The notes below the pieces were generated by a model. That model ran no database searches and had not been told where the DNA came from. It was given only the letters and a program-made list of their open reading frames with translations. DNA of 44,294 nucleotides from Sarcina sp. DSM 11001 (lineage in GTDB: Bacteria; Bacillota; Clostridia; Lachnospirales; Lachnospiraceae): assembly GCF_900101015.1 (NCBI RefSeq), contig NZ_FNFZ01000008.1, forward strand, positions 1-44,294, given 5' to 3'. A program made the position numbers and the translations under genes. Below, in pieces: positions 1 through 44,294 of the stretch. How positions within the stretch are numbered: the stretch's first letter is position 1; each line of letters begins with the position of its first letter.

Positions 1-140
1 GCAGTTCCAGAAACCGCTGACATTCCTGTACAGGCACTGACGCCGGCCCGGACTGATCCCGTGCGCGGTCTCCGCTTGCGGTGTCCGCGCACGGCCGGAC
101 CCGTCCTTTCGGCTCACGGCTCATCGTAACGGGTTCTCCC

Positions 141-176
141 GGCAAACAGGCAGAGAGATATCTCTGTCTGTTTGCC
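141..176. other. Long perfect-looking hairpin (inverted repeat)
   Basis: Two 16-nt arms (GGCAAACAGGCAGAGA and its near-complement, one G-T wobble) flank a GATA loop. No T-run follows on either strand, so it does not look like an intrinsic terminator. A second, smaller inverted repeat (GTGCGCGG/CCGCGCAC) lies at 61-92. Together they could be part of a leader of a gene transcribed leftwards off the window edge: an open - frame starts with ATG at 124, after a GGGAG about 11 nt upstream, and runs to base 1. The function is unknown. Confidence 0.5.
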
Positions 177-910: not shown

Positions 911-3900
911 TCAAATTAGTCTCCGTCTCCTCCAAAGCAGCCATCCTGCTCCTGCAATCAGGATAGATCCAAGGATGGTGAAGAGCCTTGTCCCAGAACC
1001 GCCGGAGTTCGGGAGGGCTGCGCCGGGTTCGTTGCCAACGACAATATCATAATTAGCAATACTCACCATGTCTGTCGCATTACCGTTAATAGGATCACCC
1101 GCTTTATGACCATCATTGTCGTCACTTCTATATACGAGTAAGACTGTCGGTGCAATGTTTTCATTATTATACTTCACCTGGAAAATCGGGTTCTCGGTTA
1201 CCTGGATGTAGCCGTCGGGACATTTCATCTCTACAATCTCATAATACCCGGCATCCAGATTGATGAAGGAGAAGATCCCAGGATTCTGAGGATTGTCCTT
1301 AACCACTACAGACTCCCCGGCAGGCACTTCTGCGGACTGTCCGTTTGGACGCCAGCTCGTGTCCTTGACCCATTCCCAACGAGAAACGCCCTCATCTCCG
1401 CTCATCTTCACCAGTTTTTTCTTCACCAGCTGGAACTCGGCTCCTTTCAGCAAAGTAGAACGATCTGGGATATTATCCTTGTCCACCTTGTAAAGGGTAA
1501 CCTCAATCGGTGGCTTTTTCTGGTTGGTAAGTGTCCACAAGTCGGTTTTTTCTTCGGTTTCTTCATCGGTTTCTACACTCTTTTCCCACTTCACGAGATA
1601 TTCCGAAGTCTGCCCATTCCAGTATGTAGGCGGATCGGGATTCAAATCGATCGGCGGCGGATTGGTTGTATTCACTGAATCCGCAGTAGAACCTGCAGCA
1701 GGGCGAATTCCTGTTTCCTTGACCTCATACTCGTAAACATAAGACATAGTTTCGCCTTCATGGTACTCGAATAGCATGAGGTTTGTGAAGCTGCCTTCCC
1801 AAATATTTTCCTGGGAGCCTGCTGCTTGCGCCCCTCCTTGTATACCCGCGTCATCATTTGCAATAATCGTGGGCAATCCATTGGCGTCTGTTGTTGTGAG
1901 CTTCATAGTGTATTCGTGCGTTTCTTCAAGGACCATAAGATCCGTGACATCTTTCTGGTTGTCGAGTACTTTTTCCAACAGCTCACTAATGTCCCATATG
2001 ATCCCCTGAGGACTATACATGGTGACTTTCCACTTGTGGTAGTCTCTCTCATTCTCAGCAAAATCTTCATACCACTGGTCATTACCGGCATGCAGATCAA
2101 GGGTAATCTCTGTGGCAGAATTGATCGCAGGAATCGTGTATGTTACACCGGAACGGTGGTCTATGCTGGCAGAATCCGCACTAAACCCATAGCCCTCTAC
2201 AAAATGATCATACTGATTAGTAACTCCGGTCGGGTTTGCCTCAATTGGAGTAATATTGAATTCGGCTCCTGCCGGGACATAAACTACAGTAGATAATTTG
2301 TTCTTAACATGTCCTGAACCAGGAACACCCTTCTCATCCTTCAGAACGACCGTTATCGGATAAAGCTTAGCCGTATGTCCATTCACATCTGTCGCCTGTG
2401 CTTTGTATTTCCGTTGTGTAACAGTGAAAACAACTTCTTCGTTCTTGTGGTTGTCAAGATTCAAATCCGGCTCGCCGTTTGCATATTTCCATTGTTTCTT
2501 GACATCGAAGTGTGTCACTTGATCCGTCGGACCCAGAGGCTCATTTGTGATGGTGAAAGAGTAGTCGCCAGGCTGCATTTCTCCATCTTCCTGCTGGGTA
2601 TCATCTCCCGGCTGTGGATCATCTCCCTGTAGATCATCATCCCCCTCTTGCTGGCTACTATCTCCTTCTTGCTGTGGATCATCCTTTTCTATTATCTCAC
2701 CACCTGAGATCATAGATTTGTACTCAGTGAGAGGAGTATCCTCTGTAATGAAGTACTCGTATTTATAGTATACATACTCCCCATTCTCCCCAATCTGCTG
2801 ATCCCACGAGGCACCGGTCTTCGGAAGCTTATAGACAGTTTCTTTCCATTGGTTCACGGCATAACTAAGCTCCCCTGTATATCCGTCCATCGCTGAAACG
2901 AGGATCTTAGTCACATCTTGTGAATCAATATATTCCCATTTCTTTTGCCCTGGATTCTCATCATCATCAACCCACTGGTAGCGTTTTCTGTGGATCGAGT
3001 ATTTGATAGTCTCAGAATGGTTAGCACCATTTGGCTGATCATCTGTCCATACCTTCTCCACTTCAACGGCGGTGGTATTGATGTTGTTGGTGAAGATTGC
3101 TTCAGGCGAATCATCTCCATTCACGCCGGGCAATACCTTTAACGTTGTGTAATTGATAACATCTGATGCTGTTCCATCATCCGGGTCATCCTCATTACCC
3201 GGGTCATCTCCGTTATTCGGGTCATCCCCATTGCCCGGATCATCTCCGTTATTCGGATCATCCCCATTGCCAGGATCATCTCCGTTATTCGGGTCATCCC
3301 CATTACCCGGATCATCTACGTTATCCGGATCATCCTCAGGGATTTTGGATACGCTGACCAGCTTTGTTCCGTTAATTGGATCTATCTCGGTAACTGTATA
3401 CACACCCGGAAGCATATCTGTCACAGTGACGGTATTTTCAACCCCGTTTGTTATTGTAATGCTTACCTTGCCATCTTCGATCAGAGTTCCGTTTACCTTA
3501 CCCTTTGCAGGTTTTCCCTCTGCATCTGTAATGGTAAAGAAGTATACGCCATCTGCATAGTCTGCCCAGTCGGTTTCTACTGCAGAAGCACCATCTACGG
3601 TTACATTCTTTGTGATCTTCAGGGAGCCTGTATCAATCTTGTTCTTAAAAGTAAGGTGGTTATCCCGGTTCCCGACAATTTCTCCGGTAATAGTATTATT
3701 ACTTATGGAAGTAATGGTCTGGCTGGATTCAACTGTAGTGCTGACAGTGCCATCTTCATTTTCTGTCTCTACTTTGATCTGCTTCAGAATACTTATCAGA
3801 TCATAATCGTCATATCTGTGATCATCGGGATCCTCACGATCAAGAAGCTCTTCGATCGTATAAGTTGTTCCCACCGGTACATTCGCAATGTAGAGAGTCT

Positions 3901-6900
3901 CAGTCTGGGTGATCGATAAAACCGCAGAAACCGTTGTCGTGGACGTTGTTTCAATTGGATTGCCCTCTCCATCCTCACCGTGATCTACTGCCGGTGTCAT
4001 CTGATTGCCATAGAGCACAACCGTGCCAGTCTCGGGCTCCTCTCCTTCATCACTGATAAGGTAGGTAATAGTCTGTGCCCCAACCCGGTTTGGGTCACAC
4101 TCACCTTCGTGAACAACCTCAACCATATTGCCGGTTCCATCGTCTTCTTCCCACGTGCTGCTGATAACTTTATAGCTTTTGCCGCTTTCATCCCACAGCA
4201 TCCACACATTTTCATCCGTATCTTCATCATGAACGATATCTATCTGATAATAGTTTTCGTTTCCATCGTTATAGAAAAGTCCCTTAATATATGAGGGTAT
4301 GCTTATACCATACCAGGGAATATGATCTCCTTCAAAAGGCCCTGGATCCGTTGGGCTGACCAGCGTAATCTCATATTCAAATTTCGTATCATCATAAGGA
4401 ATGTTGTTCTGGTTCTGGTCAACCACAACTTTGTCCAACTTGATATAACCGCGTAAGGTGTTCTCAATTTGAAGTGCTGAGAGACTCGTCCCTGCAGCTG
4501 TCATACTCTTAATTGACCCGTCCTGATTAAATTCTACATTTCGAATCACACCGTCAACCAGCATGGGATGATATACCGGCGCGTCAAAGTCAAACTCATA
4601 GCCAATATTTTCTCCACGCTCTTTGATCGTATAATCGTGCCCAGGTTCCAAAATGTAATATGTCGTACCCTCATGAGTGACAGAGGGATAATCATAATCA
4701 TCCGGATCCATATTATGGGCTATCATCTGAGCATAGCTGAGCATGAGGCCCGCAGAAATGGAGAAGTCCGCCGCCCAGCGAGTGCCAATCTGATGCGTTA
4801 CTTTACCATATCTTACTGTCTTCATTGGGCTGCCAGGTGCCCAGACATAATGGCCTCCCACAACCTCGCCCTGATCATTATATTCGTTTTCCCATCCAAT
4901 ATTGACCGTTCTATAAGGAACTGTGTTATCTCCCTGATAGATATCGAACGTAACCTTGAATTGTTTTGAAGTACCATCAGGATTATACAGATACTGTGCC
5001 AGGATGCTGGCATCTCTTTCCACGTTCCACTGCTTCTCCAGCCTTGACTTGGTATCCTCCAGCTTCATTGGATCCGGGAAATCCATGGGGATCGGCTCCT
5101 GTGGTACAACACTGACCACTTCTCCGTCCTCTGTTGTGAGGATCGAATAATCAAGTTGCTGCCCATCATTTGTCAGAACAGCAAATCTGCCATTGTATAT
5201 ACCTTTATCGAAATCGTCACCGACTCCGGGATAATATGAAATACTTGGATATTCGGAACAGCCGCCCGTATAACCTGTTATATTGCCGTCTTCATCCGTC
5301 ACCGGTTTTGCCCGATAATACAACACGTTGCCGTTCTCATCTTTAACAGCTTCTGTGCCGTCCTGGTCCCAGCTGATAGGAATCAGGACAGCATATGTCC
5401 CTGGCTGCTCATCTTCTCCGGGATAATATGCCAGTTCCGGATACTCTGTAGACCCGCCAGTATAATACAACACATTACCTTCTGTATCCGTTACCGGTGT
5501 AGCGTTCTCCTCATTCCAGGTACTATCGGCACCCTCCGGTACGTTATTGAAATCAGGAAGCACTGTAAGCCCATTGTTCAGCGCCGATACATAGTCATAC
5601 GCATCCTGATTGGGCCAGACAACAAAATCCGCCTCATAGGTGTAGTCGTCCATGAGCATCCCAATGGGTGACAGATCCCAGATAAGCTTACCATTGTTAT
5701 TGACATCCGCCAGAGCCATCTTATACACCGTCTCTGTTCCGTCGTCCCCGGTCAGTGTGACGGAGTAATACACACCATCATCATAGGAATTCTTCGGGTC
5801 AGATGCTACCGGATCGTTCGGATCTGACGTTTTTTCGTGCCTGACCACCTGAACATCACCATTCGGATAAGTTACATTGTTGATCGTGAAGGTCACATCA
5901 GGATCGCCGCCATCCCCAGGCATAGAAGCTGTGACGGTGTATAGAGGCGTCGTGCTTCCTTTCTTTGTGACTTTATAAAGGGCACTGGTAGGCTTGCCAT
6001 CCGTAATATTGAACGTCATGGCATCCTGCCGGAGACCGTCTGTAATCTTGACCTGGGCGTGAGACTGGGTCACAGATATTTCAGAAAAAATATTCTGGAA
6101 TGCCTGAACAAGTTTTTCGGTGTCTGTGGCGTTGGTGAAATATTTCTGAGCTGCTGGAGAATCCGGAAAATAGTCTGTTGGTTCCTGATTGTCATGAACG
6201 TTATCATATTCATATTCAGATTCACCATATGCGTAATTCGTTAAACGAACCAGATATTTATAGTCGTCGTTAGTACCATATGTGAAGATATTGTACAGCT
6301 TATAACCATTTTGTACTATTTTTCTGGCTTCATCTGTAGAATCCTCATAAGCCGGTTCACAGGAATTTCGGGGACGATTTCGATTATCTTTCTGCGTCGC
6401 ATTATGACCACTTGTTCCATAATAAGCACCGTCTTCTTCAGTAATCGACCATGTGGTTGCAGTCGGACCGCCGTCGGTCAAAAAAACGACGTAATAATCT
6501 TCTTCGTCACCATCCCCGCCTACTCCATTCACTCCATTCTTTTTTTTGTCAATTACATCATATGCATATTTTAATGCTTCTTCCCAGTTAGTTCCCCTGG
6601 CGACACTTGAATCATCGTTGATACCGTTCATCAAATTAGTCTTATCAGTTCCCGTTTGCCAGTCTACCTCAGTATGGCTATTCCAATTTCCACCAAGATA
6701 GTTCTTTTCCTGATCCTTCCCTTTAAAGGTGGCAAAGCTGATAACAGCTATCTCGACATTATCACTATTCTCTCCGCTGGCATCATTCTTTCTCATGAGG
6801 TTGGTAATTACACCATCAAGGGCTGCCTGCTCTGCGTCTAGCCTCGTACCATTTGTAATTCGATAATAGATTCCATTTGCGGGATTATACTCGTACGGAA

Positions 6901-9900
6901 TCCCCATTCGTGAATAACGCCATACACCGTCATGATAAGTAATCCAGACATAAGAACCATTAACATTGCCGTACAATGTTGGCCCATTCTCATAATCGGT
7001 TCCAGAATATTCAATATAAGCTTCTCTGACAGTATTAGTCACCATACTGCTCGAGCGGTCCATAACAAACAGTACATTAGATTTTTTTGTCTCTGTAACG
7101 GTATATTCTTTACTGTCACCAGTCACGCTCAAAGACAGTGTATACGTACCATCTTCTTTTCCATTTTTCTCGTTCGGAACAAGACTCTTCTTAGGGTCAG
7201 GTTTTTCTAAAGGTGCAGGCGTACCTAAAGACGACAGCCTAAGTTTGGGAACATGAAGTGCTCCTTCAACATCTTCCGTCTTATGACCGACATATGTTCC
7301 TATTACAGAGAAGCTGTCCTGATCATAACGATATTCTATCAAACGACCTTCTTCGTCTGTCTTTGTCTCAATTTCTTCAATCAGTTCAACCTCTTCATCA
7401 TTCTTAAAATGAGAAACACCAGTAAGATACTCTTCAATTTCGTCAACACCTAAGCCTTCTTCGTAACTGATATCCACCTGTACGGATGTTTTCGGTTCAA
7501 TCTTATTTTCCCCATGCATTAGAGTGATGTCGAAGAAACGAGCCTGGTCAATATTCACCATCGGGACATCTTCAGGAATATAATCCTCATCCTGATCACG
7601 TTGTTCTTCCTGTTCGAAATAATCTTTATTTACCTCTATCCAGGTTCGGCCAATAAGCTCCCGGTATTCGTCTGTTCCTTTCTCGATTTCCGTCACTACA
7701 AGTTTCGTTCCCGCTGGAATCTCAGCATCATCGTCGAATGTCAGCGTAATTTTATATGTCTTTCCATCTGCAGTCAGAACATTTGTACTAATTTGATAAT
7801 CTGTCACCCGGATGTTAAATACTTCTCCATCCTTCATCGTCACAGTCAGACTCTCTTCGCTAGTGAACGGGAGCATGCTAATTAAAGCCCAGTCACCGGC
7901 TTCCACTGTCTGCGCATTAATCTCCGCAATTTGCTCTTCTGTCAGCTCCGCGCTGTACTGACACTCCAGCTCACGACTCTCCTTAATCTGACCAACTGTG
8001 GTTTCTTTCCCAACTTTGCTTACATCAATCAACTCAGGGCTGCTGAATTCCACAGAAGCAATATCCGTAACAAATTTCTTCGCCGCATCGTTTGCCTCAA
8101 CATCAAGCATGCCCTTAGCATCCTGTGCTTCATCGTCTTCTATTTCAGCATCATTTTTATCTGAGTTTGTATCACTAATTACACCCAGCACTTCCACGAG
8201 ATCAATAAAGCTGACAAATCCTCCCCCGGGGAGTGAAAATTCGTATACTTTTCCATCCACTTCCCAGTGAAAGTCCACGGTATAAACAATGGCGTAAATG
8301 GAGAAGGAATCAGCATCAAAAGTCAGAGTATCTGCCGGTTCATTTCCAGTTTCTTTTTCTGTGTCTTTGGCAGTTTCGTTTTCATTTTCCTTCTCAGTTT
8401 CTTTTTCCCCGTTTATATCCTTTTCCGCATCTTCCTCTTTATTTGCATCTTTTCCGATGTCAGTGGAGGATTCCTCTATAGTTTCCATTACAGTCGGTTC
8501 CTCTTCCACATGCACGACAACAGGAGCCGTGGTCTGGTCTTCGACTGCGGCTTTTATAGCGTCTGATGTCATGCTGACCCGGATCTGTTTTCGCGGTTCA
8601 ATCTCTTTACCGTTTGCGTCACGGAAGGAAATGTCCACGGCATGGAAGCCGCGGGTCTTATTGCTGACGGAGTCGTTGGAAGTCACTGCATTTTCCACAG
8701 CCTCTGCGACGCTGTCCAGGTCATCTCCGGTCACATTGGCGAGGACCATGGTAGTACCCTCCGGGAAGGTGTCTTCATCCGCTTCGACATGAACTTTTAT
8801 GGTCGTTGTCTCCGCAGCGGACTCCATCGTATCTGTGTCAGATCCCAGTTTTCCGCCATGGACGAAAATACTCTGGTCAAAGGTAACTGCGGGCATACGA
8901 ACAGAAGACTGCCGATCCTCCTCTTCAGCCTTTTCTGAATTGTCCTCTTGAGATTCATATTCCTCAGATGCTTCTATTTCTTCGACACGCACTTCCTCCA
9001 TCTTCAGTGTTGTACTGATTTCGTCAGTGCCCTTAATACCGAGTTTTTTATCCTCCTTTACTTTCTCTGCAAAAACGATTTTCGCTTTCTTTTTGACAGT
9101 TGTTGTAATGATTTTTTTCACAAGCTGCTGTCCGGCGAGGTTTTTGTCTTCAGAGACCTCTTTCTTTTCATCGGTCTCAGCATCATCTTCTTTTGTATCA
9201 GCTGTCTCAGCTTTGTCTGCCGAATCTGCCTGGTCTGAGGTCTCTCCATCGTTGGCTTCCGCATCTGCCTGGTCTGCATTCTCACCATCGGCAGCTTCCG
9301 CATCTGCCTGCTCTGCGTTCTCGCCATCGGTGGCTCCCGCATCTGCCTGCTCTGCGTTCTCGCCATCGGTGGCTCCTGCATCTTCCATCCTTACATCGGT
9401 GTCCGTATCCGTCGTGATCCAGTCCACCTGCTGCATATTGAAATCCAGGGTCAGCCAGCCGCTGACTGTCTCCCCGGCCTTGGTCGGCTGTCCGCCGGCA
9501 TCGTAGCCGTGCCGGTTTTTCTCGATCGTATAAGGAGAGAAGGTGATGATCAGGTCCTGTCCGATCAGCTCTCCGGATCCACGGCCGGATTCGTCCAAAT
9601 CAAAGACATTCTCAACCTTGACGGTTGCGCTGACGCATTCTGTGCCGTCTTGTTCCGGATGCTCTGCCAGGTACTTTTCCCTGTCATCAGAAGGATTTCT
9701 GCTACCTTCCACAGCCTCCAGCCCCAGATAGGCTTCATGCTTTTCCTGGTCAGTTATTTCAAGAGTGTTGAGATTCACATAGCTCTTTGAGATCCCGTTC
9801 TCAGTCTGATTGATCGCCTCGACCTGCCGGTCGGTGAGGTGCAGGTTTGAAGGCAGGCGGTATCTGGCCACCGGATTCGTCGCATTGAGATTACCCGCCG

Positions 9901-11554: not shown

Positions 11555-12160
11555 AAACACACTCTTTCCCTGTACTTTTACAGTTATTCCGAAATCATTG
11601 CACAAGGTTTTCCCATCGATATGTCAATATGTTTATATCTCTCCAAATGTTCAATCCGTTTTAACGTACCTGATTAAATCTGTCTGTTACTGTGTCTGTT
11701 ACCATCTTTGTTTTCTTTGTTTTGCGCATCAGGTTTCTGTTACAAGGCTGAAGTTTATCCTGGATTTATACTAAAATAGCTTCAATTTATACAAATAAAT
11801 ATAGGTATACTATCATACTAATTTTAGCAAAGACACTATCTAATACTCCGTCAAAACATCGGCTATCAGTGTGCATTTTCGGGTGTTAAAATGTAAATTT
11901 TTTGTGTCTAAAATATGATGTTAAAACATACTTTCAGGGTTGTGATATTCCGGCTCCGAAAGGCTAAGGTCACCTATGACAGGGGAAAGATAAAGCGATA
12001 TTCCGGCTCAGAAAGGACAAGGTCACCTATGACGGGAAATAGTAAAGCGATATTCCGGCTCCGCAAGCACAAGGTCACCTATTCCTGCGAGACAGCAAAG
12101 CGATATTCCGACTCCGGAAACACAAGGTCTCCCACTTGGAAGTCTGCCTCTAATTTGAAG
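11555..12160. other. Intergenic region upstream of the giant adhesin
   Basis: About 600 bases without a convincing gene. The half next to the adhesin is AT-rich and should hold its promoter. A TTGACA occurs near 11630 on the - strand without a good -10 partner, and several TATAAA-like boxes lie around 11770, so I cannot place the promoter. The distal half is filled by the 53-bp repeat array described separately. A + strand frame of 101 codons across the repeats looks non-coding. Confidence 0.6.
11944..12150. repeat. Four imperfect 52-53-bp tandem repeats
   Basis: Copies begin at 11944, 11997, 12049 and 12102, each with GATATTCCGGCTC. A conserved block of about 34 bp (ending AAGGTCACCTAT in the first three copies) is followed by a more variable 12-15 bp and AAAGC. 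The variable parts are too short for CRISPR spacers. The array sits between the HAD-gene terminator and the adhesin leader. Confidence 0.85.
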
Positions 12161-14856: not shown

Positions 14857-15017
14857 CACCACATCACCTCTTCGTTCCAGTAAATACCACCTATGCACCC
14901 CGGCAAAAAATGAACATTGCGTAAACATAAAAATACGACAGTACAATCTCCCCTCTTTCTGTGGTACAGTAAATCAGAAAGGTAAAACAAAGACAGCAAA
15001 GACATAAGGAGCCTTTT

Positions 15018-31023: not shown

Positions 31024-31974
31024 TCATTCATAGTAGATTTGTTTGAGTTCAGGTGTGTAGGTCCCGTCTTTTTCATATACAATGAGGGGCGGTTCTACGC
31101 GCAGCTCCGGGGCTCCGCCGCGGACGCAGTCCAGAAGGACCATATTGGGCTCTTTATCAGCGTAGGGATACACCAGGCGCATGCGTTTAGGTTCAAGGCC
31201 GGCTGCGCACAGTTTTGTCAGGATCTCAGGAAGGCGCATGGGACGATGCACCATGTAAAAATGTCCTCCCGGGCGCAGGAGCCGTGAGGCTGCGCGGACA
31301 ACATCGTCCAGCGTACACAGGATCTCGTGTCGGGCGATCGCCCGGGGGTCCGGCTCCCCGGGGATTCCTGATCCGGTTTCAATGCTCCCTTTTTGTACCG
31401 GCTTAAGCCCGGAAACATCCCCCGCGGTTCCCGCCGGTGTCCTCGTAAGCCCGGAAGTGGTTCCGGTGATCCTGCCGCTGCCTACAGCGCGATAAGGCGG
31501 GTTGCAGGTAATCAAATCAAAAGAAGCAGGTGCAAAAATGCGGTCTGCTTCTCTGATATCTCCCTGTACGATATGGACGCGGTCCTGAAGGCCGTTGAGT
31601 GCGATGCTCCGGACGGCAAGACCGGCGCTTTCAGGCTGAATCTCCAGACCTGTCAGCGAGGCGCAGTCAGTCCGGTCCGACAGGAGCAGGGGGATGATGC
31701 CGTTGCCGGTCCCCATGTCCAGTCCCCGCCGGGCCTTTTTTATCCTGACATAAGCTGACAGGAGAACAGCATCCATCCCGAAACAGAAAAGGGAGGGATC
31801 CTGTATGATGCGAAGTCCGCCCCTCTGCAGGTCATCAATGCGTTCGCCTGGGCGGAGCAGGCTTCCGTCTCCGGCACTGCTGCTTTTGTATTCTGACCTG
31901 TTATCACGGTATTTCAATCTGTTCTCACGGTACTCCGACCTGTTATCACGGTCTGTCCCGGTTTTACCTTCCAT
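31024..31974 (-). CDS. trmN6: tRNA1(Val) adenine-37 N6-methyltransferase (TrmN6/YabB-like)
   Basis: 316 residues, longer than the usual 240-250. The methyltransferase core starts at LLRPGERIDDLQ and FCFGMDAVLLS. SAM-binding motif I is DMGTGNGIIPLLL, and the catalytic NPPY (here NPPYRA) marks an N6-adenine methyltransferase. AIARHEI and the C-terminal half are typical of the YfiC/YabB family. Two additions stand out. One is an N-terminal array of three 7-residue units (residues 9-29, RDNRSEY/RENRLKY). The other is a Gly/Thr/Ser-rich insertion of about 35 residues between NPPY and AIARHEI. GAGGAAG stands upstream of ATG. The 98-base gap to ricT contains CTATTACGG-type repeats. Confidence 0.88.
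   Translation of the reverse strand: MEGKTGTDRDNRSEYRENRLKYRDNRSEYKSSSAGDGSLLRPGERIDDLQRGGLRIIQDPSLFCFGMDAVLLSAYVRIKKARRGLDMGTGNGIIPLLLSDRTDCASLTGLEIQPESAGLAVRSIALNGLQDRVHIVQGDIREADRIFAPASFDLITCNPPYRAVGSGRITGTTSGLTRTPAGTAGDVSGLKPVQKGSIETGSGIPGEPDPRAIARHEILCTLDDVVRAASRLLRPGGHFYMVHRPMRLPEILTKLCAAGLEPKRMRLVYPYADKEPNMVLLDCVRGGAPELRVEPPLIVYEKDGTYTPELKQIYYE
31888..31950 (-). repeat. 21-bp in-frame tandem repeat at TrmN6 N terminus
   Basis: Three units of 21 bp encode RDNRSEY, RENRLKY and RDNRSEY. The DNR motif is also repeated in the C-terminal tail of the neighbouring RicT. Confidence 0.85.
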
Positions 31975-32072
31975 TCTGTCTATCTGTTCTTCCTCTATAA
32001 CTATTACGGGGCTATTACGGGCTATTACGTATTACGCTTTATGACGTGTATGCGTTTATGCGCTTGTGCAGC

Positions 32073-33362
32073 TCAGGAATTATCTCTGGAAGTTTCTGCG
32101 GGGGAATTATCTTCTCTGCGGAAATCATCCTTATGGGACCGGCGGTCGCCTCTGCCTCTGCCGCGGTCTCTCCTGCCGTGTTCTCTGCCGCCGCTCTCGC
32201 GGGCACCCTGAGCTTTTCCGGCGCTTTCGTCTCTTCCCTCTCCTCTTTCTCTGCCGTCACGGGATTCCCGGGGTTCCCTGCCCTCTCTGAAAGGCCTGCC
32301 CTCATGGCGGGACCGGTTCTGGTAATCTCCTCTTTCTCTGTTGTCACGGGAATCTTTATTATCACGAGGCTCTCTGTTGTCACGGTTTTCTTTACCGTCG
32401 CGGTTATCTCTGCCTTCGCGGCTTCCCTCTTTTCCGCTGGACTGTCTGGGGGGAGCTTCTTTTTCTTTCGGAGTATTTTTCTGGACAGGAGTCTTCTGCA
32501 TGGTCGGACGGCTGGCTCCCCTGCGGCGTCTGCGCAGGATCGTCAGATCACTGACATGATATTCGTGGAGCTCTTTTTCGTCATCAACTTCTACGATGAT
32601 CCGCGCAGTCTGACGGAGAATATTGACGCTCTCGACAAGGCCGTTGAGCCCGTCTGCGGATTCCACCTCGTCTCCCGGATGAGGCAGGGTCTTATTGAGC
32701 TCCTCATAGGTCTCCGCTTCGTTCTTGAGGCAGCACATGAGTCTCCCGCAGACGCCGGAGATCTTGCCGGGGTTCAGCGAAAGATTCTGCTCCTTGGCCA
32801 TCTTGATGGATACAGGAATGAAATCCGAGAGCCAGGTGTGGCAGCACAGGGGTCTTCCGCAGCTGCCATAACCGCCCAGGATCTTGGTCTCATCCCGGAC
32901 ACCGACCTGGCGCAGCTCAATGCGTGTGCGGAAAACACTGGCCAGATCCTTGACCAGCTCCCTGAAATCGATACGGCCGTCCGCAGTAAAATAAAAAAGC
33001 ACTTTGCTGTTATCAAAAGTATATTCCGCGTCGATCAGTTTCATCTCGAGGCCGCGGCGCTGAATCTTTTCACGGCAGATCCGGAAGGCTTCCCTCTCCC
33101 GCACGCGGTTACTTTCCATCCGCTCATCATCTTCCCGGGTGCTCAGACGCAGAACAGCCTTGAGAGGCTTCTGGATATGTTTTTCACTCACTTCCATGGG
33201 CGCTCCGACTACAAAACCGTATTCTACGCCTCTCGCGGTCTCCACAATGACGTGGTCCCCGCGTGTCATCTCAAAATCTCCCGGATCAAAAAAATATATC
33301 TTGCCGGCAGTCCTGAACCGGACTCCTACGACCTTTACTTTTCCATTTTCAGTTACTTCCAT
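32073..33362 (-). CDS. ricT: PSP1-domain protein RicT (YaaT) with long charged tail
   Basis: 429 residues from ATG 33362 (MEVTENGKV), which has AGAGGTG six bases upstream; an in-frame upstream start would add 24 unlikely residues. RicT/YaaT is the core of the RicA-RicF-RicT (Y) complex that binds Fe-S clusters and guides RNase Y processing in B. subtilis. Cysteine ligands are visible as CGRPLCC (C168, C173, C174) and CGRLMCC (C205, C210, C211). The PSP1 domain ends near residue 276. Residues 277-429 are Arg/Asp/Glu/Gly-rich with DNR and GRE/GRD repeats, resembling RGG-type RNA-binding disordered tails. B. subtilis RicT is about 275 residues, so the tail is an addition. Neighbours holB, trmN6 and rsmI follow the Firmicutes order. 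Confidence 0.93.
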   Translation of the reverse strand: MEVTENGKVKVVGVRFRTAGKIYFFDPGDFEMTRGDHVIVETARGVEYGFVVGAPMEVSEKHIQKPLKAVLRLSTREDDERMESNRVREREAFRICREKIQRRGLEMKLIDAEYTFDNSKVLFYFTADGRIDFRELVKDLASVFRTRIELRQVGVRDETKILGGYGSCGRPLCCHTWLSDFIPVSIKMAKEQNLSLNPGKISGVCGRLMCCLKNEAETYEELNKTLPHPGDEVESADGLNGLVESVNILRQTARIIVEVDDEKELHEYHVSDLTILRRRRRGASRPTMQKTPVQKNTPKEKEAPPRQSSGKEGSREGRDNRDGKENRDNREPRDNKDSRDNRERGDYQNRSRHEGRPFREGREPRESRDGRERGEGRDESAGKAQGARESGGREHGRRDRGRGRGDRRSHKDDFRREDNSPAETSRDNS

Positions 33363-33536: not shown

Positions 33537-34715
33537 TCAGCGGCCCCGGGTCCTGTAAGCGGCGCGCAGCTCCAGAAGCATCATCTGGAGGGTCAGCTCC
33601 GCATTCACGTTGGAAAAAAGTCTGCGCCTGGCGCGGAACACCGCTTCGGAGGCCGCCTGGAGCCCGCTCCAGGAAGCTTTTTGCGCAGCTTCTTTAATAT
33701 ACTGTACTTCATCAGTAAAAATCAAGTTTTCTGTGGAGAGTGTGCTGCGGCAGACAAGGAGATCCCTGTTCCAGGTCAAAACAAAATCTATGAGGTCCCG
33801 GGTCTCCTCCTGCGCCGCCGTATCGCGGGCAAACGCCGCGATCTCCGCTGCGTCTTTTTCCGTTATCCTTCGCAGAAAGGAGATCGTTTTTTCCCGGAGT
33901 TTCGCAAAGTTATCATTTTCCAGAAGAAGGGCTGCCCTGCCTATGCTGCCGCCGGAAAAACGGGCGCAGAGACGGGCGCGTTCTTCCTCCGCGCCGAAAC
34001 GTTCCCTGAGGCAGTTTTCCACAGCGTCCTCGGGTACCGGCCTGAGGGGCAGGGTGACGGCGCGGCTCATGACGGTCGGCAGGAAATTTGTCGTCCCGTC
34101 GGCCAGAAGGAGGAGGACCGCATAGGAGGGGGGCTCCTCGAGAGTCTTGAGGAGGGCGTTCTGGGCCGCGGGTGTCATTTTTTCCGCGTCAGGGATTATG
34201 TAGACCTTATGCGCTGCCCTGTAGGGGCGGATCATGATATCGGCGCGCATTTTACGGATGTCGCCCACACCGATGCTGGTCTCCTTTTCCCGCTCCAGAG
34301 TGATGATGTCGGGGTTTGTCCCGGAAGCCGCCTGAATACAGGAGAGGCACTGCCCGCAGGGCTCGAGATCTCCCGCATCCACACCGGCAGGAGCCTTTCC
34401 TCCCGTATCCGCCGCAGGGGCGTTATCACCAGTTTCCGTCGCAGAAACGTTTTCTACCTTATCTACTGCAGGAGCGTTTTCGCCGTTTTCCGCCGCAGGG
34501 GCGTTTTCGCCGGGAGCTTTTTTATCAGACACATATTTGGCAGGCCGTGCATTTTCGCACAGCAGAGCAGCCGAAAAACTCCGGGCGATCATATGCCGCC
34601 CGGAGCCTTTTGCCCCGTTGAGGATATATGCGTGGGATACGCCGCCCGTGCGCAGCGCGTTCTGAAGATGCGAGACGATGATGTCCTGCCCTATGATCTC
34701 TGAAAATCTGTTCAT
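33537..34715 (-). CDS. holB: DNA polymerase III delta' subunit with zinc-loop insertion
   Basis: 392 residues; clamp-loader subunit of the replicative polymerase. GQDIIVSHLQNAL, HAYILNGAKGSGR (Walker-A-like, residues 34-40) and the sensor region KTLEEPPSYAVLLLL.ADGTTNFLPTVMSR are typical of the HolB/DnaX AAA+ family. The zinc module consists of C53 and C120-x2-C123-x2-C126. In other bacteria about nine residues separate the first Cys from the triad; here 66 do, because five 9-residue units (70-115, ENAPAAENG type) are inserted. The C-terminal collar domain looks normal. First gene of the holB-ricT-trmN6-rsmI series. No ribosome site of normal spacing; see the promoter entry. Confidence 0.93.
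   Translation of the reverse strand: MNRFSEIIGQDIIVSHLQNALRTGGVSHAYILNGAKGSGRHMIARSFSAALLCENARPAKYVSDKKAPGENAPAAENGENAPAVDKVENVSATETGDNAPAADTGGKAPAGVDAGDLEPCGQCLSCIQAASGTNPDIITLEREKETSIGVGDIRKMRADIMIRPYRAAHKVYIIPDAEKMTPAAQNALLKTLEEPPSYAVLLLLADGTTNFLPTVMSRAVTLPLRPVPEDAVENCLRERFGAEEERARLCARFSGGSIGRAALLLENDNFAKLREKTISFLRRITEKDAAEIAAFARDTAAQEETRDLIDFVLTWNRDLLVCRSTLSTENLIFTDEVQYIKEAAQKASWSGLQAASEAVFRARRRLFSNVNAELTLQMMLLELRAAYRTRGR
34401..34508 (-). repeat. 27-bp in-frame tandem repeat in holB
   Basis: Four units of 27 bp coding for ENAPAAENG, ENAPAVDKV, ENVSATETG and DNAPAADTG, and a diverged fifth. They are located inside the zinc-binding loop. Confidence 0.85.
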
Positions 34716-36417: not shown

Positions 36418-36814
36418 AAAGTTTCCTCTCCTTCCATACTGCTGAATCCCGGGAACTGTTTGTAAAAAAGAGTTCCCTGCTCCTCTGTGATCATCACTTG
36501 GAAATGTGAGATCCCCATCTTCGATAACAGTGCTGTGTGTGTATGTCCTGTTGATTGTATTATAAATGAAACATCCGCTTTGATAAAGAATAAATTATAT
36601 GAAATTATTTTAATCACTAAATTGTAGTAAAACCTACGGATTCTCGTGACTTCTGTCTTCCGGGTTGTATGAGCGAGTCTTGAATACAGGGAAATGTTTT
36701 TCACGAGGCAGCAGTCCGGGTAAAGAGAAATGCAGCATAACCAGGTACAGATCTGCGCAAAAAATGGTATATCTGTATATCTGTATATCTGTACATCATG
36801 ATCCGGGGCTTTAC
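36418..36814. other. Leader and promoter region of pyk
   Basis: The pyk leader (about 130 nt) contains a GGGAACT/AGTTCCC stem-loop near 36448-36473 with a T-rich loop, which might regulate translation or be incidental. Upstream of the promoter, 36590-36760 holds nothing I recognise. A microsatellite GTATATCT (three and a half 8-bp units) is at about 36767-36798. Confidence 0.5.
36559..36586 (-). promoter_or_regulatory. Probable pyk promoter
   Basis: On the - strand TTATCA (-35), 16 bp, TATAAT (-10), about 140 bases before the pyk ATG. Confidence 0.5.
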
Positions 36815-36854
36815 AAAAAACAGCAGCCGCATGCAAATAAGCGTGCGGCTGCTG
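36815..36854 (-). terminator. Strong terminator of the large surface-protein gene
   Basis: On the - strand CAGCAGCCGCACGC pairs with GCATGCGGCTGCTG (one mismatch) across a 6-nt loop, followed by TTTTTTG. It lies about 100 bases past the stop, beyond the 32-bp repeats. Confidence 0.92.
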
Positions 36855-36859
36855 CTTTT

Positions 36860-36955
36860 CCTTGTTTTACGGGCTGTAAAGCCCTGTTTTACCTTGTTCT
36901 GCGGGCTGTAAATCCCTGCTGCTCCTTGTTTTACGGGCTGTAAAGCCCTGTTTTA
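36860..36955. repeat. Three 32-bp tandem repeats abutting the surface-protein stop
   Basis: Units at 36860, 36892 and 36924 start CCTTGTTTTACGGGCTGTAA; the first and third are identical. Each contains GGGCTGTAAAGCCC, a small stem-loop with T-rich flanks. The array ends two bases before the stop codon of the surface-protein gene, so it lies in the 3' untranslated region. Confidence 0.92.
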
Positions 36956-36957
36956 CC

Positions 36958-39900
36958 TTATTTTGTGATCTTCACGTTCTTGACCGGGCTCCAGGCGGAG
37001 AAGTATTTGGTACTGCCCGCGGTCTTGAATGTGCGGATCCGTACATAATAGGTCTTGCCCTTTGTGAGGCCGGTGATCGCTTTGGCCACTGTGGAGGCGC
37101 CCGAAATGGTCACCGAATTGTTTCCGGTCTTGAAGGTCTTGTCTGTGCTGTACTGGATCTGATAGCCACTCGCCTTGGCATTTTTGCCCCATTTGACTGT
37201 CATCTTCTTTGCGCCGCTGTTGGTCAGCGTGCTGATGGCCGGTCTGGCAACCCGGTAGGTCGTGACGCTCTTCGAGAGCGTGCTCCTGCCGGTGGAGGAG
37301 GCGCTGGCGATGATCTTGTAGGTGTATTTCGTCCCGTTGGTATTGGCTTTCTTGTCCGTGTAGGTGACGGTAGAGCCGTTTTTGATGGCCGCGATCTGCG
37401 TGCTTCCGCGATAGATGATATAGGCGTTCGCACCGGCGACCTTCTTCCAGGTCAGCATGATGCCGGTGACCTGGTTATCCGCCTTAAACGTCGAAGTTGC
37501 GGCGGGGACAACGCTGATGGTAACTGCTTTGGAGACAGCGTTGAAGTCGGATGTCTTCGCCGCGGTCACCGTGATCTTGACCTTGCCGACCTTGACGGCC
37601 TTGACAGTGCCGGTCTTGCTGTCTTTCTTCTTGACTGTGGCCAGTTTCTCTGAGGCGGACTTGAACGAGATGCTTCCCTTCGTGCCGGAGACCTTGATGG
37701 CCGTTGTCTTTCCGACAGCGATCTTTGTGGCATCCACGGTCAGTTTGATCGACTGGGCAGCCTTTGCGATGGTGAATTTCTTCGTGACCGTACCCTTGTA
37801 GTTGCCCTTGCCGGCGACCTTCACCGACGCGGTCCCCGCGTGGACGTTGTCGCTGTAGGTTACAGAGTAATCCGTTCCGGAAGCGAGTTTCTTTCCGCCG
37901 TGTTTTACTGTGACGGCAGGTTTCTGGGATTTTCCGTTGTAGGTATAAGTGCCGGAGGCAAGCGTCACATCGGCAGAGGCGAGCGCCGCCCTGGCAATGC
38001 TGAAGGTCTGTTCAAGGGTTCCCTCGTAGAGGCCTGTGCCCGTGACGGTCACCTTCGCGGTGTCCGTTCCGGCTTTAATATTGTTGCTGTAAGTGACGGT
38101 GTAGTCCGTGCCTTCCTCAAGGCCGCTTCCGTCATAGCTCACCCTGACAGCCGGTTTTTTCTCCCTGCCGTCGTAGGTGAGTCCCTCTGTTTCAAGGGTG
38201 ATGGCCGCGTTTCCGTCTTCCAGGGACCGGATGGCCGATGCTGCCTGCCGCGCGGTCACAGTGATCTGTTTTTCTTCGGCGATCTTTGTTCCGTCGAGGG
38301 CGATCTCCAGGATGCCCTGGCCGGGAAGACTGCCTTCCAGGGTGACACTGGCCAGGCCGTTTTCATCCGTCGTGACGGTCTGCTGTCCGACAGAGACAAT
38401 ACTCGGTGAGTAAGAGGTGATGGTAAGGGTCCGGCCTGCCCCTGCTTCCGCGGGAAGGACACGGATGGTCAGTTCCGTACTGTCGTGGTGGAGCATGCCC
38501 GTCTCCCCGGTGATCTCCAGGCTCCTGGGCATGACCGTGACTGCGTGCTGTCCGCTGTAGGCGGCGGCGATGGCCGTTCCGGCGTAGTTCTTCACATTTT
38601 TGACAGCTACGGTGACAGTCCCGGACAGTGCGCCTGCCGTCTGCGCCGGTCTGAAGGCGAAGGAGGAAGCATACCGGGCGGTTCCGTCATAGTTATCCTC
38701 GGCGTTGAGCGGCTCAATGGTGCCGGTGACGGCAGTTCCACCCGACGCTGTGACGGTGACATTGGACGTATTCACCGTGTCGATCTGCATGTACTGGCTG
38801 AAATCGATGTCAATCTCGCCCTCGTAGGCGCTGACGCCTGCTACTTCGGGCGCAGCCGTTGAGACCATGGCCGTGTTGACTTCGGTCTGGATGGGCGGCA
38901 CGGGCAGGTAGTGCTTTCCGTTTTCTCCCGCATAGGTCGCCGCTGCGTCATTATAACTGTCGGCGTCCTCATATCCTTCCTTGTTGAACTTGACGACCCA
39001 GCTGCCCTCCGGAACATCCCATCCGAAGATACCGTAGGTGTCCGTGGTCTGCGGGTTCACCTGGTCGTAGTTCTCCGCGTCCCATTTGACTTCTTCTTTT
39101 CTTCTGCCGGTCTCCTCTCCGTATTCATCATAATCGATGATCTCCGCATACTGGTAGATCGTCGCCGTGACGCCTTCAACACGGTTGGAAGGCACAGCCT
39201 CGTAGACGTAGCCGGACGGGTCGGCGATGGGTGTGGCCGACCGGATTCCCGTATAGCCGCCGCCGTCGGGGCCGCCGCCATGTTCGTCGGGTTCTTCCTC
39301 CGGCTCTTCGTCAGGATCCTCCTGATTGGGATCGCACTCACACTTTCCGCCGCCCTTCTCGCAGGGGCATTTATAGACATTCAAGGCCCTGATACTGTTG
39401 CGGATATAGTCTCTCAGCGAAATGAAGCCATCCTGGACCACGCCCTTGACGTCGAACAAACCTGTAACGTATTTTGTGAGGTCGCCCATCTTTTTCTCGA
39501 CGTAGCCCCCGGCTTCATTCGCGATGATGGCAGCGCCGTGGAAAACAGCCCTGCGGACGGATCTGGACACCTTGCCTCCATACCGCTTCATAGCGGCCTT
39601 GTAGAGCTTCTTGCAGCCCAGTTTGGCAAGCTTTCCGCCGAATTTCAGGACCTTTCCGCCGCAGTAATCCATCACAAGACCGGCGGCATAGGTTCCGCCC
39701 ATAAGGATATTGGCCCGCCTGACATAATCATCGATCTGCTTTTCTATATCCTCGGCATCTCTCCAGTATCCGTCCTTCATGTCCTTCGTGATGCACTTGC
39801 AGTTTTTCCGGATGATGGCGTTTTTGTACTCGCCAAGGGCATAGCGCAGGGTACTTTCATTTGCCCCGACGTTCAGGAAATCATTCCCGAGGTCGATCGC

Positions 39901-42900: not shown

Positions 42901-44294
42901 GGGAAGAGTCACCTCTTCCAGGGACCTGCAGTTGATCAGACATCTGTCCGGAAGATAGGTCAGGCCCTCCGGGAAGGCGACGCCCATAAGGCTCTTGCAG
43001 TCGGTAAACGCATAGCTTTCAATTTCCTCCAGGCCTTCGGGCAGGACGATCTCCTCCAGGGACTCGCACCGCTCAAACGCGCTGTTTTTGATCGTCGTGA
43101 GAGAAGCCGGCAGAGAGACCTCCTTCAGGGCCAGGCACCGGCGCAGCGCTCTCGTGGGCAGGATCCTGATCCCATTGGGGAAGTCGATCCGCGGCAGCTT
43201 CTCACAGCCGCTGAAGACCTCCTCTCCCATTGTCCGGAGGCTTGCGGGAAGTCCGACCTGCGTGAGGGAACGGCATTCCGCAATGGCATTGCGGCCGAGC
43301 TTCGTAATGCCTTCGGGCAGCGTGATCTCAGTCAGGGTGTCGATCCAGTCAAAGCCATAGGCCGGGATCTCCGTGGTCCATCCGAGCTCATAGTCCGCCC
43401 CGGAGCCAGTGGGGCCGGCTGTAGTGAGTGCCGTGTTCCGGAAAACCTGGATGCCCATTTCATTGACTGTACCCGGCATGGTGACTTTTTTCAGAGCGGA
43501 GCAGCCATAAAAAGCGTATTCTCCAATTTTGGACGTGCCTTCCGGGATCGCGACAGACTCGAGCAGCTTGTCGTTCTCAAAAGCGCTGTTTCTGATCGTC
43601 TCCAGTGTACTGCCCTCCGAAAAGGTCACTGTCGTCAGGGATGTGCAGTCGCGGAAAGCATTGCTCCCGATCACTTTGAGCGCGGCAGGGAACTCGATCC
43701 CGGTGAGGGCAGTACAGCCGCGGAAAGCAGCTTCGCCGATCTCTGTGAGATTTGCGGGAAGCGTGATCCCTTCCATCGATGTTCTGTTCCTGAAAACCTC
43801 TCTCCCGATACCGGTGACAGTATAGCCGTTCAGCTGATCCGGGATCACGATCTCCGCGGATTCATCCTTCCAACTGAGGATCGTCAGTGTCTTGTCTTTT
43901 TCATTGACAGAAGCTGTATAGGGAATCGCCGCGACCGCTTCGTCGCCGACAGGCTCTCCGTTCCGCGTCAGAACGGCCCAGCAGGGAACGAGGCCGAAAA
44001 TGTATTCGGAAAGATCATTTTGCAGATCCAGGATGTTAAACCAGCTGTCAGCGCTTTCCATCTGGACAGCCTGCACGCCGTCACCCCGCAGAATGGTCCT
44101 GTGGGAGCCGGATGCGCGGAAGGCTTCTCTCCGGCCGTTCTGGCAGAAATTTCCTTCCAGTTCCAGTGTACCCGCGGTCAGGGTATTTTCCACATAGACA
44201 TCATTTCTGTCGCGGAAGTCGTGGAAGCCGCTTACATAGAGCTCCCCTTCCACCTTCACATAGTCATTTTCGTTGGTCATGACGAGGACGCCGC
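36958..44294 (-). CDS. Large BspA-like LRR surface protein, 5' end outside window
   Basis: At least 2440 residues. The frame is still open at the window edge, so the first visible ATG (44280) is probably internal. Residues below are counted from it. Order: a beta region (1-110), about 15 BspA-type leucine-rich repeats (about 150-540; units like TSLTTVTFSEGSTLETIRNSAF), and a carboxypeptidase-regulatory-like domain (about 637-700). Several beta-sandwich domains follow, including an Ig-like TVSGKTARGSEVTVYDNGQ (about 1073-1127). A Lys-rich helical part (about 1440-1633) and a Cys cluster CPCEKGGGKCECDP (about 1635-1648) come next, then an acidic linker, a Cna-like domain, two YDG/MBG-type repeats (about 2036-2170), a Big_2-like domain, and two Fn3 domains to the end. 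There is no LPxTG or C-terminal membrane segment. Probably secreted, with the signal peptide off-window; adhesion is inferred. Confidence 0.9.
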   Translation of the reverse strand, partial: GVLVMTNENDYVKVEGELYVSGFHDFRDRNDVYVENTLTAGTLELEGNFCQNGRREAFRASGSHRTILRGDGVQAVQMESADSWFNILDLQNDLSEYIFGLVPCWAVLTRNGEPVGDEAVAAIPYTASVNEKDKTLTILSWKDESAEIVIPDQLNGYTVTGIGREVFRNRTSMEGITLPANLTEIGEAAFRGCTALTGIEFPAALKVIGSNAFRDCTSLTTVTFSEGSTLETIRNSAFENDKLLESVAIPEGTSKIGEYAFYGCSALKKVTMPGTVNEMGIQVFRNTALTTAGPTGSGADYELGWTTEIPAYGFDWIDTLTEITLPEGITKLGRNAIAECRSLTQVGLPASLRTMGEEVFSGCEKLPRIDFPNGIRILPTRALRRCLALKEVSLPASLTTIKNSAFERCESLEEIVLPEGLEEIESYAFTDCKSLMGVAFPEGLTYLPDRCLINCRSLEEVTLPDSLREIRGWAFENCESLTVLEIPDGVTTIRSLAFKNAKNLTQLIVPESVTTLDNDAILETNSSSLVMYVVPGSTAEQYAIDHGISYENLTNTGSAVSVKVTDPNGETIVNGYSVSWYASDSDTLLGTGKKLRNVQAGTQVVCRVILNEELGSLYIQPDDVTYTAGSTDGTAEITLRAFETITVRGTVKDAEGAAIPNAALELKQTLNGMYDKTVEAQADEAGAFTLDAKKARAALTVSAEGYYDGAYAVSESSIQEGTAVVNAVLEKIPADKITLTLGRQAAAVPGEEPEITVQTNANGLVLSVYNETKQKSVKDFRFQYPYLNLGGDAAAAGDRIRLSLQDENKVLTAEDVTVTLDENRCGSAEWLLVENGKLRLDGIKASDAENSRSTVMIFDASGRIMESGTAAGSYASKPLSAGDYTLVLIEKTALLQGLDSFGRLAELGLAEGTDFVRQNVTINNGVITVLENVTVPDLDETKLYYTVDNATRFWTAAGKVTTGQYVTLRATYEIDRQKAAQTSGETLTFEIPDGLTFVQGSLTSDGRAAACTVQEDDETGSTQVTVRMNTGKGTVRFYVVPTSSGVKKAHAYLSFKKGTEDVMQPVGAVSVGVEAASISVPSRTGFKKVTVSGKTARGSEVTVYDNGQAVGTTETNKNGTWSLEFDLVRPLKYSYHEIYAQVENSEYGDIETEKAGILYNANFVQVSKVTMINTAHPSSNLRPTEYRTVFDFLHPESTVPTYNYWPSYPTFTFLVEFTGESVEGISNVRVITTNAAGDRTAVTCTYDEAGGVWVGTRDYRSFSDVPCKVAVKCDNASGDAIDDSMDMDDMAEFLAEARNIDESAGPLVEEFANIQNETIANERVSFDFTAGDEKLGEYSMVLLDYADFDLEAWKKDRYVEFEGSDGSISYEAGWLTDETYTIYTAYPDDEIYIKEVVRLTPGASAQGTASKSGAGFRAPLAGSAVYDPARKSLSLDEWTDTVTAGYKANGDIGKGFKQITGIQDAIDLGNDFLNVGANESTLRYALGEYKNAIIRKNCKCITKDMKDGYWRDAEDIEKQIDDYVRRANILMGGTYAAGLVMDYCGGKVLKFGGKLAKLGCKKLYKAAMKRYGGKVSRSVRRAVFHGAAIIANEAGGYVEKKMGDLTKYVTGLFDVKGVVQDGFISLRDYIRNSIRALNVYKCPCEKGGGKCECDPNQEDPDEEPEEEPDEHGGGPDGGGYTGIRSATPIADPSGYVYEAVPSNRVEGVTATIYQYAEIIDYDEYGEETGRRKEEVKWDAENYDQVNPQTTDTYGIFGWDVPEGSWVVKFNKEGYEDADSYNDAAATYAGENGKHYLPVPPIQTEVNTAMVSTAAPEVAGVSAYEGEIDIDFSQYMQIDTVNTSNVTVTASGGTAVTGTIEPLNAEDNYDGTARYASSFAFRPAQTAGALSGTVTVAVKNVKNYAGTAIAAAYSGQHAVTVMPRSLEITGETGMLHHDSTELTIRVLPAEAGAGRTLTITSYSPSIVSVGQQTVTTDENGLASVTLEGSLPGQGILEIALDGTKIAEEKQITVTARQAASAIRSLEDGNAAITLETEGLTYDGREKKPAVRVSYDGSGLEEGTDYTVTYSNNIKAGTDTAKVTVTGTGLYEGTLEQTFSIARAALASADVTLASGTYTYNGKSQKPAVTVKHGGKKLASGTDYSVTYSDNVHAGTASVKVAGKGNYKGTVTKKFTIAKAAQSIKLTVDATKIAVGKTTAIKVSGTKGSISFKSASEKLATVKKKDSKTGTVKAVKVGKVKITVTAAKTSDFNAVSKAVTISVVPAATSTFKADNQVTGIMLTWKKVAGANAYIIYRGSTQIAAIKNGSTVTYTDKKANTNGTKYTYKIIASASSTGRSTLSKSVTTYRVARPAISTLTNSGAKKMTVKWGKNAKASGYQIQYSTDKTFKTGNNSVTISGASTVAKAITGLTKGKTYYVRIRTFKTAGSTKYFSAWSPVKNVKITK

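What the first reader, a model, noticed from the sequence alone, without database searches (positions are those of the whole stretch)
1..44294. In-frame minisatellites interrupt housekeeping genes across the window
Tandem arrays with different units occur in most gaps (8, 15, 21, 24, 27-28, 32, 52-53, 60 bp) and, always in multiples of three, inside genes: HAD (15 bp x15), ogg (60 bp x2.3), holB (27 bp x4-5), AI-2E permease (27 bp x4), trmN6 (21 bp x3), DUF6465-like (69 bp x2-3), zinc-ribbon, CotH and RicT tails. Repeat units differ between sites, so this is not one transposing element. It looks like a genome-wide tendency to create and expand repeats at loops. The two highly expressed metabolic genes, pckA and pyk, have none.
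Basis: partly seen in the sequence, partly recalled or inferred. Interest (0 to 1): 0.72.

Follow-up and report, generated by a model that had tools for sequence, protein, structure and literature searches.

The report
Lineage-wide tandem repeats inside ordinary genes
A group of related bacteria carries unusually many short tandem DNA repeats, both between genes and, in multiples of three bases, inside loops of everyday proteins such as DNA-repair enzymes, often with a different repeat or insert at the same spot in sister species.

Summary
The observation largely holds. The window has 29 tandem arrays (one in ten shuffles together). All 17 inside genes have periods divisible by three; 6 of 12 between genes do. 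In a 604 kb sample of the same genome it is 103 of 106 against 54 of 133. Density per 10 kb is 4.3 here, 5.2 in eight sister genomes, 2.4 in the next clade, 1.5 in ten other congeners and 1.05 in five genomes of four other genera of the family, with some scatter. Where orthologues could be aligned (Ogg, HolB, the TrmN6 loop, MutS), distant relatives mostly lack the inserts, while sister species carry different ones at the same loops. The Ogg array is modelled as a disordered loop in an otherwise confident fold. Units inside genes show purifying selection in the true reading frame only (ratio 0.43; wrong frames about 1). Best explanation: a clade-wide excess of local tandem duplication, filtered by reading frame and disorder, then eroded by point mutation. 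Its cause is unknown; MutS, RecJ and SbcD are present. Two corrections: the 52-53 bp intergenic array belongs to a dispersed family on about seven contigs, and CotH has no array.

The parts
911..11605 (-). 3564-aa LPXTG surface protein with 7 in-frame arrays (12-39 bp units)
11944..12129 (+). intergenic 52-53 bp x3.5 array; member of a dispersed family in this genome
12289..12473 (.). intergenic 24 bp x7.7 array, 95% matches, unique in own genome
12834..12961 (-). degenerate 15/30 bp array in the C-terminal extension of a HAD hydrolase, after the HAD domain (residues 4-200)
13904..13958 (.). intergenic 15 bp x3.7 array
14232..14380 (-). 69 bp x2.2 array in the DUF6465 protein
14730..14860 (.). 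intergenic 25 bp x5.3 array
16203..16426 (+). 48/24/12 bp array in the linker of a zinc-ribbon membrane protein
16460..16498 (+). 12 bp x3.2 array, same linker
17740..17790 (+). 9 bp x5.7 array, poly-Gly tail of a TPM-domain protein
20988..21127 (-). 60 bp x2.3 array in ogg (8-oxoguanine DNA glycosylase), in the loop between strands E26-29 and E83-88
24592..24622 (.). intergenic 15 bp x2.1 array
27326..27411 (.). intergenic 28 bp x3.1 array
27622..27650 (.). intergenic 15 bp x1.9 array
29068..29205 (+). 27 bp x5.1 array in the C-terminal tail of an AI-2E family transporter
30898..31012 (.). intergenic 21 bp and 18 bp arrays in the rsmI-trmN6 gap; sister species hold other arrays in the same gap
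31896..31952 (-). 21 bp x2.7 array at the N-terminus of trmN6 (start codon uncertain)
32001..32029 (.). intergenic 10 bp x2.7 array
32335..32384 (-). 18 bp x2.8 array in the RicT (PSP1) tail
34387..34512 (-). 27 bp x4.7 array in holB (DNA polymerase III delta prime), just before the LEPCGQC motif
36767..36797 (.). intergenic 8 bp x3.9 array
36852..36964 (.). intergenic 32 bp x3.5 array

Best explanation
Most arrays are locus-specific minisatellites made by repeated local tandem duplication (replication slippage or template switching), a process unusually productive in this clade. Between genes, units of any length are kept. Inside genes, almost only duplications in multiples of three survive, mainly in loops, linkers and tails that can stay disordered. 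Point mutation then blurs the units, so old arrays become non-repetitive inserts, and new arrays arise at the same permissive sites. Shown: the excess, the frame filter, the disordered peptide composition, recurrence of different inserts at the same sites, absence in most distant orthologues of the genes that could be aligned, and purifying selection on the peptides. Inferred: slippage or template switching as the mutation, decay of arrays into plain inserts, and an insertion bias or weak purging of insertions as the reason for the excess.
For: Density per 10 kb at TRF score 50 or more: own 4.33 (270 arrays in 624 kb), 8 sister genomes 5.15, next clade of 6 genomes 2.44, 10 other congeners 1.49, 5 genomes of four other genera of the family 1.05, 9 genomes of other families 1.56; seven more genomes of other families have 0 to 1.0; E. 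coli 50 kb has 1 array. Frame: 103 of 106 coding arrays have periods divisible by 3, 54 of 133 intergenic ones do (Fisher p 5e-23). Selection: within-array nonsynonymous/synonymous ratio 0.43 (95% bootstrap 0.35-0.54) in the true frame, 0.99 and 1.05 in the wrong frames, on the 85 in-frame coding arrays without indels. Array peptides are rich in Q, E, S, T, K, D and poor in W, Y, F, L. Ogg: 23 of 30 rows have no insert at the site, nor has a solved bacterial Ogg (3f0z); G000 has a 60-bp repeat, G010 a different 16-residue repeat, G008, G039, G064 and G011 related non-repeat inserts, G018 a short one; the model has pLDDT under 50 at residues 33-73 and 90 or more at 251 of 324 residues. TrmN6 loop: G000 and the six sister species whose sequence covers it carry inserts that by eye share only their ends; 15 genomes outside the clade have none; the G010 array (60 bp x3.6, 98%) duplicates the conserved flank itself. 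HolB: 27-bp array in G000; an independent 42 bp x2.7 array at the same site in distant G072 but no array in its nearest relative G003. MutS: six clade members carry different inserts at one loop, outgroup G069 has none. rsmI-trmN6 gap, TRF threshold 40 for all: arrays in 5 of 7 clade members, not alike by blastn except G008/G039; in 1 of 8 outside. Clade supported 100/100.
Against: Density scatters: sister G009 is 1.47, while G110 in another genus is 3.75 and G027 in another family 4.25 per 10 kb, so the excess is not exclusive to the clade. Most genomes were sampled at only 3 to 60 kb. Not every clade member has every insert: Ogg of G067 and G009 has none. Not every outsider lacks them: sparse G015 has a MutS match split at the same place, and G018 has a short Ogg insert. 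MutS (9 of 9 clade genomes), SbcD (9 of 9) and RecJ (8 of 9; G014 in two contig pieces under the cut-off) are present, so none of these losses explains the excess. No copy-number change within one species was observed. At least one intergenic family is dispersed rather than local.
Confidence: 0.72

Rival explanations
1. The duplication rate is ordinary; purging of slightly harmful insertions is weak in this clade (relaxed selection, genome growth), so arrays and long intergenic gaps accumulate.
For: Density correlates with genome size among 24 congeners (Spearman 0.68, p 3e-4, not corrected for phylogeny). Called coding fraction is 0.72-0.81 in the dense genomes G000, G008, G010, G039, G049 and G064 against 0.86-0.92 in G004, G013, G016, G044, G047 and G058.
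Against: Other sparse congeners have low called coding fractions too (G015 0.60, G005 0.61, G069 0.70, G063 0.71; the caller is weak on small samples). Array peptides are still under clear purifying selection (0.43). Near-perfect arrays exist between genes (20 of 133 with 98% or more matches; 2 of 106 in genes), which points to recent births. Genome-wide dN/dS was not measured.
Confidence: 0.4
2. The arrays are adaptive: disordered linkers are favoured, for example to tune interactions or solubility, and tandem duplication is the raw material.
For: Purifying selection in the true frame; recurrence at the same sites.
Against: Intergenic density is about four times the coding density (9.97 against 2.25 per 10 kb), so the main effect is not protein-specific; inserts at one site mostly share no visible sequence between species.
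Confidence: 0.12
3. A family of mobile or dispersed repeats seeds the arrays.
For: The 52-bp unit occurs as arrays or single copies on C41, C32, C45, C48, C26, C53 and C24, in both orientations, beside unrelated genes.
Against: Only 13 of 258 units have an off-site match in the 604 kb sample and the strongest window array is unique in the genome. The sample is about a seventh of the genome, so more families may exist.
Confidence: 0.06
4. Assembly or binning artefact.
For: The genome is a draft in 76 contigs and many congeners are fragmented and incomplete.
Against: Window arrays are only 29-224 bp; several separate assemblies show arrays at the same sites; frame filter and codon-position signal hold.
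Confidence: 0.02

Closest known systems
Bacterial minisatellites / VNTR loci
   Same: Head-to-tail units of about 9-70 bp, in genes and between genes.
   Different: Here they are dense genome-wide and lie in internal loops of housekeeping enzymes, with different units at orthologous sites. In one E. coli comparison non-palindromic minisatellites made up 18 of 1,037 variable loci (PMC2884548, passages read).
Rickettsia palindromic elements (RPE)
   Same: In-frame insertions into many unrelated metabolic genes, predicted to be compatible with protein structure (PMC10969869, passages read).
   Different: RPEs are about 150 bp members of ten shared families with a conserved peptide; here units differ at nearly every site.
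Low-complexity insertions of Plasmodium housekeeping proteins (recalled, no call)
   Same: Species-specific repetitive inserts in loops of conserved enzymes.
   Different: A bacterium of about 50% GC, not an AT-rich eukaryote.
Contingency loci (phase variation; recalled)
   Same: Tandem repeats thought to arise by slippage.
   Different: Periods inside genes keep the frame, so copy change would not switch genes off.
Small dispersed repeats / REP-like elements (for the 52-bp family only)
   Same: Short repeats, tandem in places, at several intergenic sites.
   Different: No stable hairpin in the one unit folded (z +1.6 on both strands); no partner transposase was sought.

Membership tests
Minisatellite / VNTR | tandem head-to-tail units of about 9-100 bp beyond chance | tested here: met
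Minisatellite / VNTR | copy number varies between strains of one species | not testable with these tools
   one genome per species is held; between species, arrays differ at the same sites
Rickettsia palindromic elements | the same sequence family at many insertion sites | tested here: not met
   13 of 258 units match off-site in the sample, mainly paralogous coding repeats and the 52-bp family
Rickettsia palindromic elements | in-frame insertion in unrelated metabolic genes | tested here: met
Contingency loci | repeat changes shift the reading frame | tested here: not met
   103 of 106 coding periods are multiples of three
Contingency loci | promoter repeats switch expression | not tested
   intergenic arrays were not tested for effects on promoters
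REP-like dispersed repeat (52-bp family) | found at several unrelated intergenic loci | tested here: met
REP-like dispersed repeat (52-bp family) | palindromic hairpin | tested here: not met
   one unit folded on both strands, z +1.56 and +1.61

The most novel reading that the evidence does not exclude
The clade carries a heritable tandem-duplication mutator state, a change in replication or recombination enzymes that raises duplications of about 10-70 bp without loss of MutS, RecJ or SbcD. It continually creates new disordered loops in housekeeping proteins, including repair and replication proteins (MutS, Ogg, HolB, SbcD) that themselves carry inserts.
Probability: 0.3. Interest if true: 0.78.

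Novelty: new variant of a known kind. Interest (0 to 1): 0.55.

Why it matters
How insertions arise and are tolerated in conserved proteins is usually inferred from rare, ancient events. Here many apparently independent, partly recent in-frame births can be compared at the same loop in sister species. That makes loop tolerance and insertion bias measurable in a bacterium, and it warns that length differences in MutS, HolB or Ogg need not mean new function.

Tried and rejected
Loss of MutS, RecJ or SbcD as the cause: all present in the clade (RecJ of G014 lies in two contig pieces under the cut-off). Over all 25 genomes searched the cut-off was reached in 24, 23 and 22. MutL, RecG, PolA, ExoVII and others were not searched. 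A DNA motif driving the arrays: 4-mers of intergenic units are at most about 1.6-fold enriched over other intergenic DNA. Microhomology signature: the extra length beyond two copies is most often -1 to 2 bases with a long tail (75 arrays), and TRF thresholds bias it, so nothing was concluded. Known RNA families: none at gathering threshold in the window. Hairpin-forming units: of two units folded, the 52-bp one folds worse than its shuffles; the 24-bp one gives z -0.94 and -1.63. HAD orthologues: the best hits were 41-42% identical (G005, G069) and covered only the HAD domain; my script then recovered only the G000 frame, so the birth of that array was not dated. Zinc-ribbon linker: 12 loci given, the script recovered G000 and three usable orthologues with shorter linkers, a weak comparison. 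DUF6465, TPM, surface-protein and intergenic arrays other than the rsmI-trmN6 gap were not compared between species. A first MutS alignment used a wrong frame for G069 and was redone. Inserts at one loop were judged different by eye in alignments; a formal pairwise test was run only for the rsmI-trmN6 gap. Paper searches for this phenomenon in Lachnospiraceae: 'tandem repeats + Lachnospiraceae + minisatellite' 0 papers, 'variable number tandem repeats + Lachnospiraceae' 2, neither about it by title and abstract start; wider searches listed nothing equivalent by title and abstract start. Absence from print is not claimed beyond these searches.
Full report
OBSERVATION. TRF on the window gives 42 rows, which reduce to 28 merged intervals or 29 one-per-site arrays. 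Ten dinucleotide-preserving shuffles give one array in total. With a simple hexamer-based gene caller of my own (19 genes), 17 arrays lie in genes, all with periods divisible by three, and 12 lie between genes, of which 6 have such periods. Ten of 19 genes and 8 of 16 gaps over 50 bp hold an array. Seven coding arrays are in one 3564-aa LPXTG surface protein. CotH has none at this threshold, and the HAD array is degenerate. pckA and pyk have none, but neither do seven other genes.

GENOME-WIDE. The window is contig C41 of a 4.15 Mb, 76-contig draft. A sample of 33 usable stretches out of 41 (604 kb, window included; 8 dropped for 100 or more N) has 258 arrays: 106 coding (103 with period divisible by 3), 133 intergenic (54 divisible, against a third expected, p 0.08) and 19 straddling. 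A slightly larger set (624 kb) gives 109 of 112 and 59 of 140. Intergenic density is 9.97 per 10 kb, coding 2.25. 67 of 426 called genes carry an array. The three coding exceptions have periods 19, 20 and 31.

COMPARISON. Pooled densities per 10 kb are: own 4.33; 8 sister genomes 5.15; next clade, 6 genomes, 2.44; 10 other congeners 1.49; 5 genomes of four other genera of the family 1.05; 9 genomes of other families 1.56; at score 100 or more these are 1.73, 2.22, 1.33, 0.62, 0.32 and 0.41. Seven further genomes of other families, not pooled, have 0 to 1.0. E. coli K-12 has 1 array in 50 kb. Individual samples scatter: G009 in the clade 1.47, G110 outside the genus 3.75, G027 in another family 4.25. 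The clade (9 rows with G000) is supported 100/100 in an RsmI tree. Density correlates with genome size (rho 0.68, 24 congeners), not corrected for phylogeny.

ORTHOLOGOUS SITES. Ogg: 36 of 61 genomes gave a match and 30 loci were read. In 23 of the 30 the protein runs from QCFRW to YRIIAG without an insert. G000 has a 60-bp repeat there, G010 an unrelated 16-residue repeat, G008, G039, G064 and G011 related non-repetitive inserts, and G018 a short one; clade members G067 and G009 have none, and no Ogg was found in G014 and G049 to compare. The nearest solved bacterial Ogg also lacks an insert. An AlphaFold2 model of the G000 protein (15-sequence alignment, mean pLDDT 86.6) puts residues 33-73 below 50, between strands 26-29 and 83-88, and 251 of 324 residues at 90 or more; the conserved GVGxKVA and DVW motifs are kept (their catalytic role is recalled). 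TrmN6: at an internal loop, apart from the window's N-terminal array, G000 and the six sister species whose sequence covers it (G008, G010, G014, G039, G049, G064) carry inserts that by eye share only their ends; G009 is masked there, G067 and G058 are partial, and 15 genomes outside the clade have none. In G010 it is a 60 bp x3.6 array (98%) whose unit contains the conserved flank, direct evidence of local duplication. HolB: the 27-bp array is seen in G000 only; G049 has a non-repeat insert and G003, G013 and G036 shorter ones; distant G072 has its own 42 bp x2.7 array at the same site while its nearest relative in the tree, G003, has no array, so that birth is recent. MutS: G000, G010, G039, G049, G067 and G014 hold different inserts at one loop, G069 none; but G015, a sparse congener outside the clade, also shows a split match there. 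SbcD of G000 and G010 shows the same pattern by eye. The rsmI-trmN6 gap, at TRF threshold 40 for all, holds arrays in 5 of 7 clade members, not alike by blastn except G008/G039, and in 1 of 8 outside. RsmI and PckA align without large inserts. AI-2E tails are low-complexity in all six sister orthologues aligned and RicT tails in many congeners inside and outside the clade, so for these two the tail itself is not special to G000. HAD, DUF6465, TPM and the surface protein were not usefully compared.

SELECTION. Between adjacent units of the 85 in-frame coding arrays without indels the nonsynonymous/synonymous ratio is 0.43 (0.35-0.54) in the true frame and 0.99 and 1.05 in the two wrong frames. 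Array peptides are enriched in Q, E, S, T, K, D and depleted in W, Y, F, L. So the arrays as a set are translated, kept disordered in composition, and moderately constrained.

DISPERSED FAMILY. The 52-53 bp unit at 11944-12129 recurs on C32, C45, C48, C26, C53 and C24, with a downstream tail that also occurs alone on C29 and C54. Neighbouring genes differ, for example an AAA/ClpB-D2 protein, a folD-type protein, a pyruvate-ferredoxin oxidoreductase subunit, a VanY-like protein and a P-type-ATPase-like protein. Among 60 congeners only G008, G011 and G064 show weaker matches. In the sample 13 of 258 units match elsewhere, against 0 in three sets of shuffled units; the 24-bp array is unique in the whole genome.

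MECHANISM. Shown: excess, frame filter, disordered composition, recurrence of different inserts at the same sites, purifying selection. Inferred: slippage or template-switch duplication as the source, and either a raised duplication rate or weak purging as the reason. MutS, SbcD (9 of 9 clade genomes) and RecJ (8 of 9) are present, so the cause is open. The tools give one genome per species, so within-species copy change was not tested.

VERDICT. A real, lineage-wide and unusually strong case of a known kind of DNA (minisatellites), with the new feature that different arrays and inserts recur at the same internal loops of housekeeping proteins across sister species.

Noticed in passing
11944-12206: Dispersed composite element: 52-bp tandem units followed by a tail with a terminator-like stem (CCGGC..GCCGG) and a near-palindromic AGTGGACCACT-like motif; tail-only copies on C29 and C54 (L213, L217).
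   Followed up: partly
L286, L287 (G000 C33 and C69): The genome encodes two SbcD homologues over the family cut-off; the C33 copy has a Ser/Gly-rich insert where G010 has a different one.
   Followed up: no
911-11605: 3564-aa LPXTG-anchored surface protein with SpaA and DUF7604 domains and an acidic low-complexity N-terminal part.
   Followed up: no
36958-44280: 2440-aa protein with BspA-type leucine-rich repeats and a fibronectin type III domain.
   Followed up: no
L185-L186 (G110) and L071-L072 (G027): Two genomes outside the genus also show raised array density (3.75 and 4.25 per 10 kb), so dense states may have arisen more than once.
   Followed up: no
L172:13760-14403 and L170:834-5008: Congeners G072 and G013 hold large arrays with a 63-bp period.
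   Followed up: no
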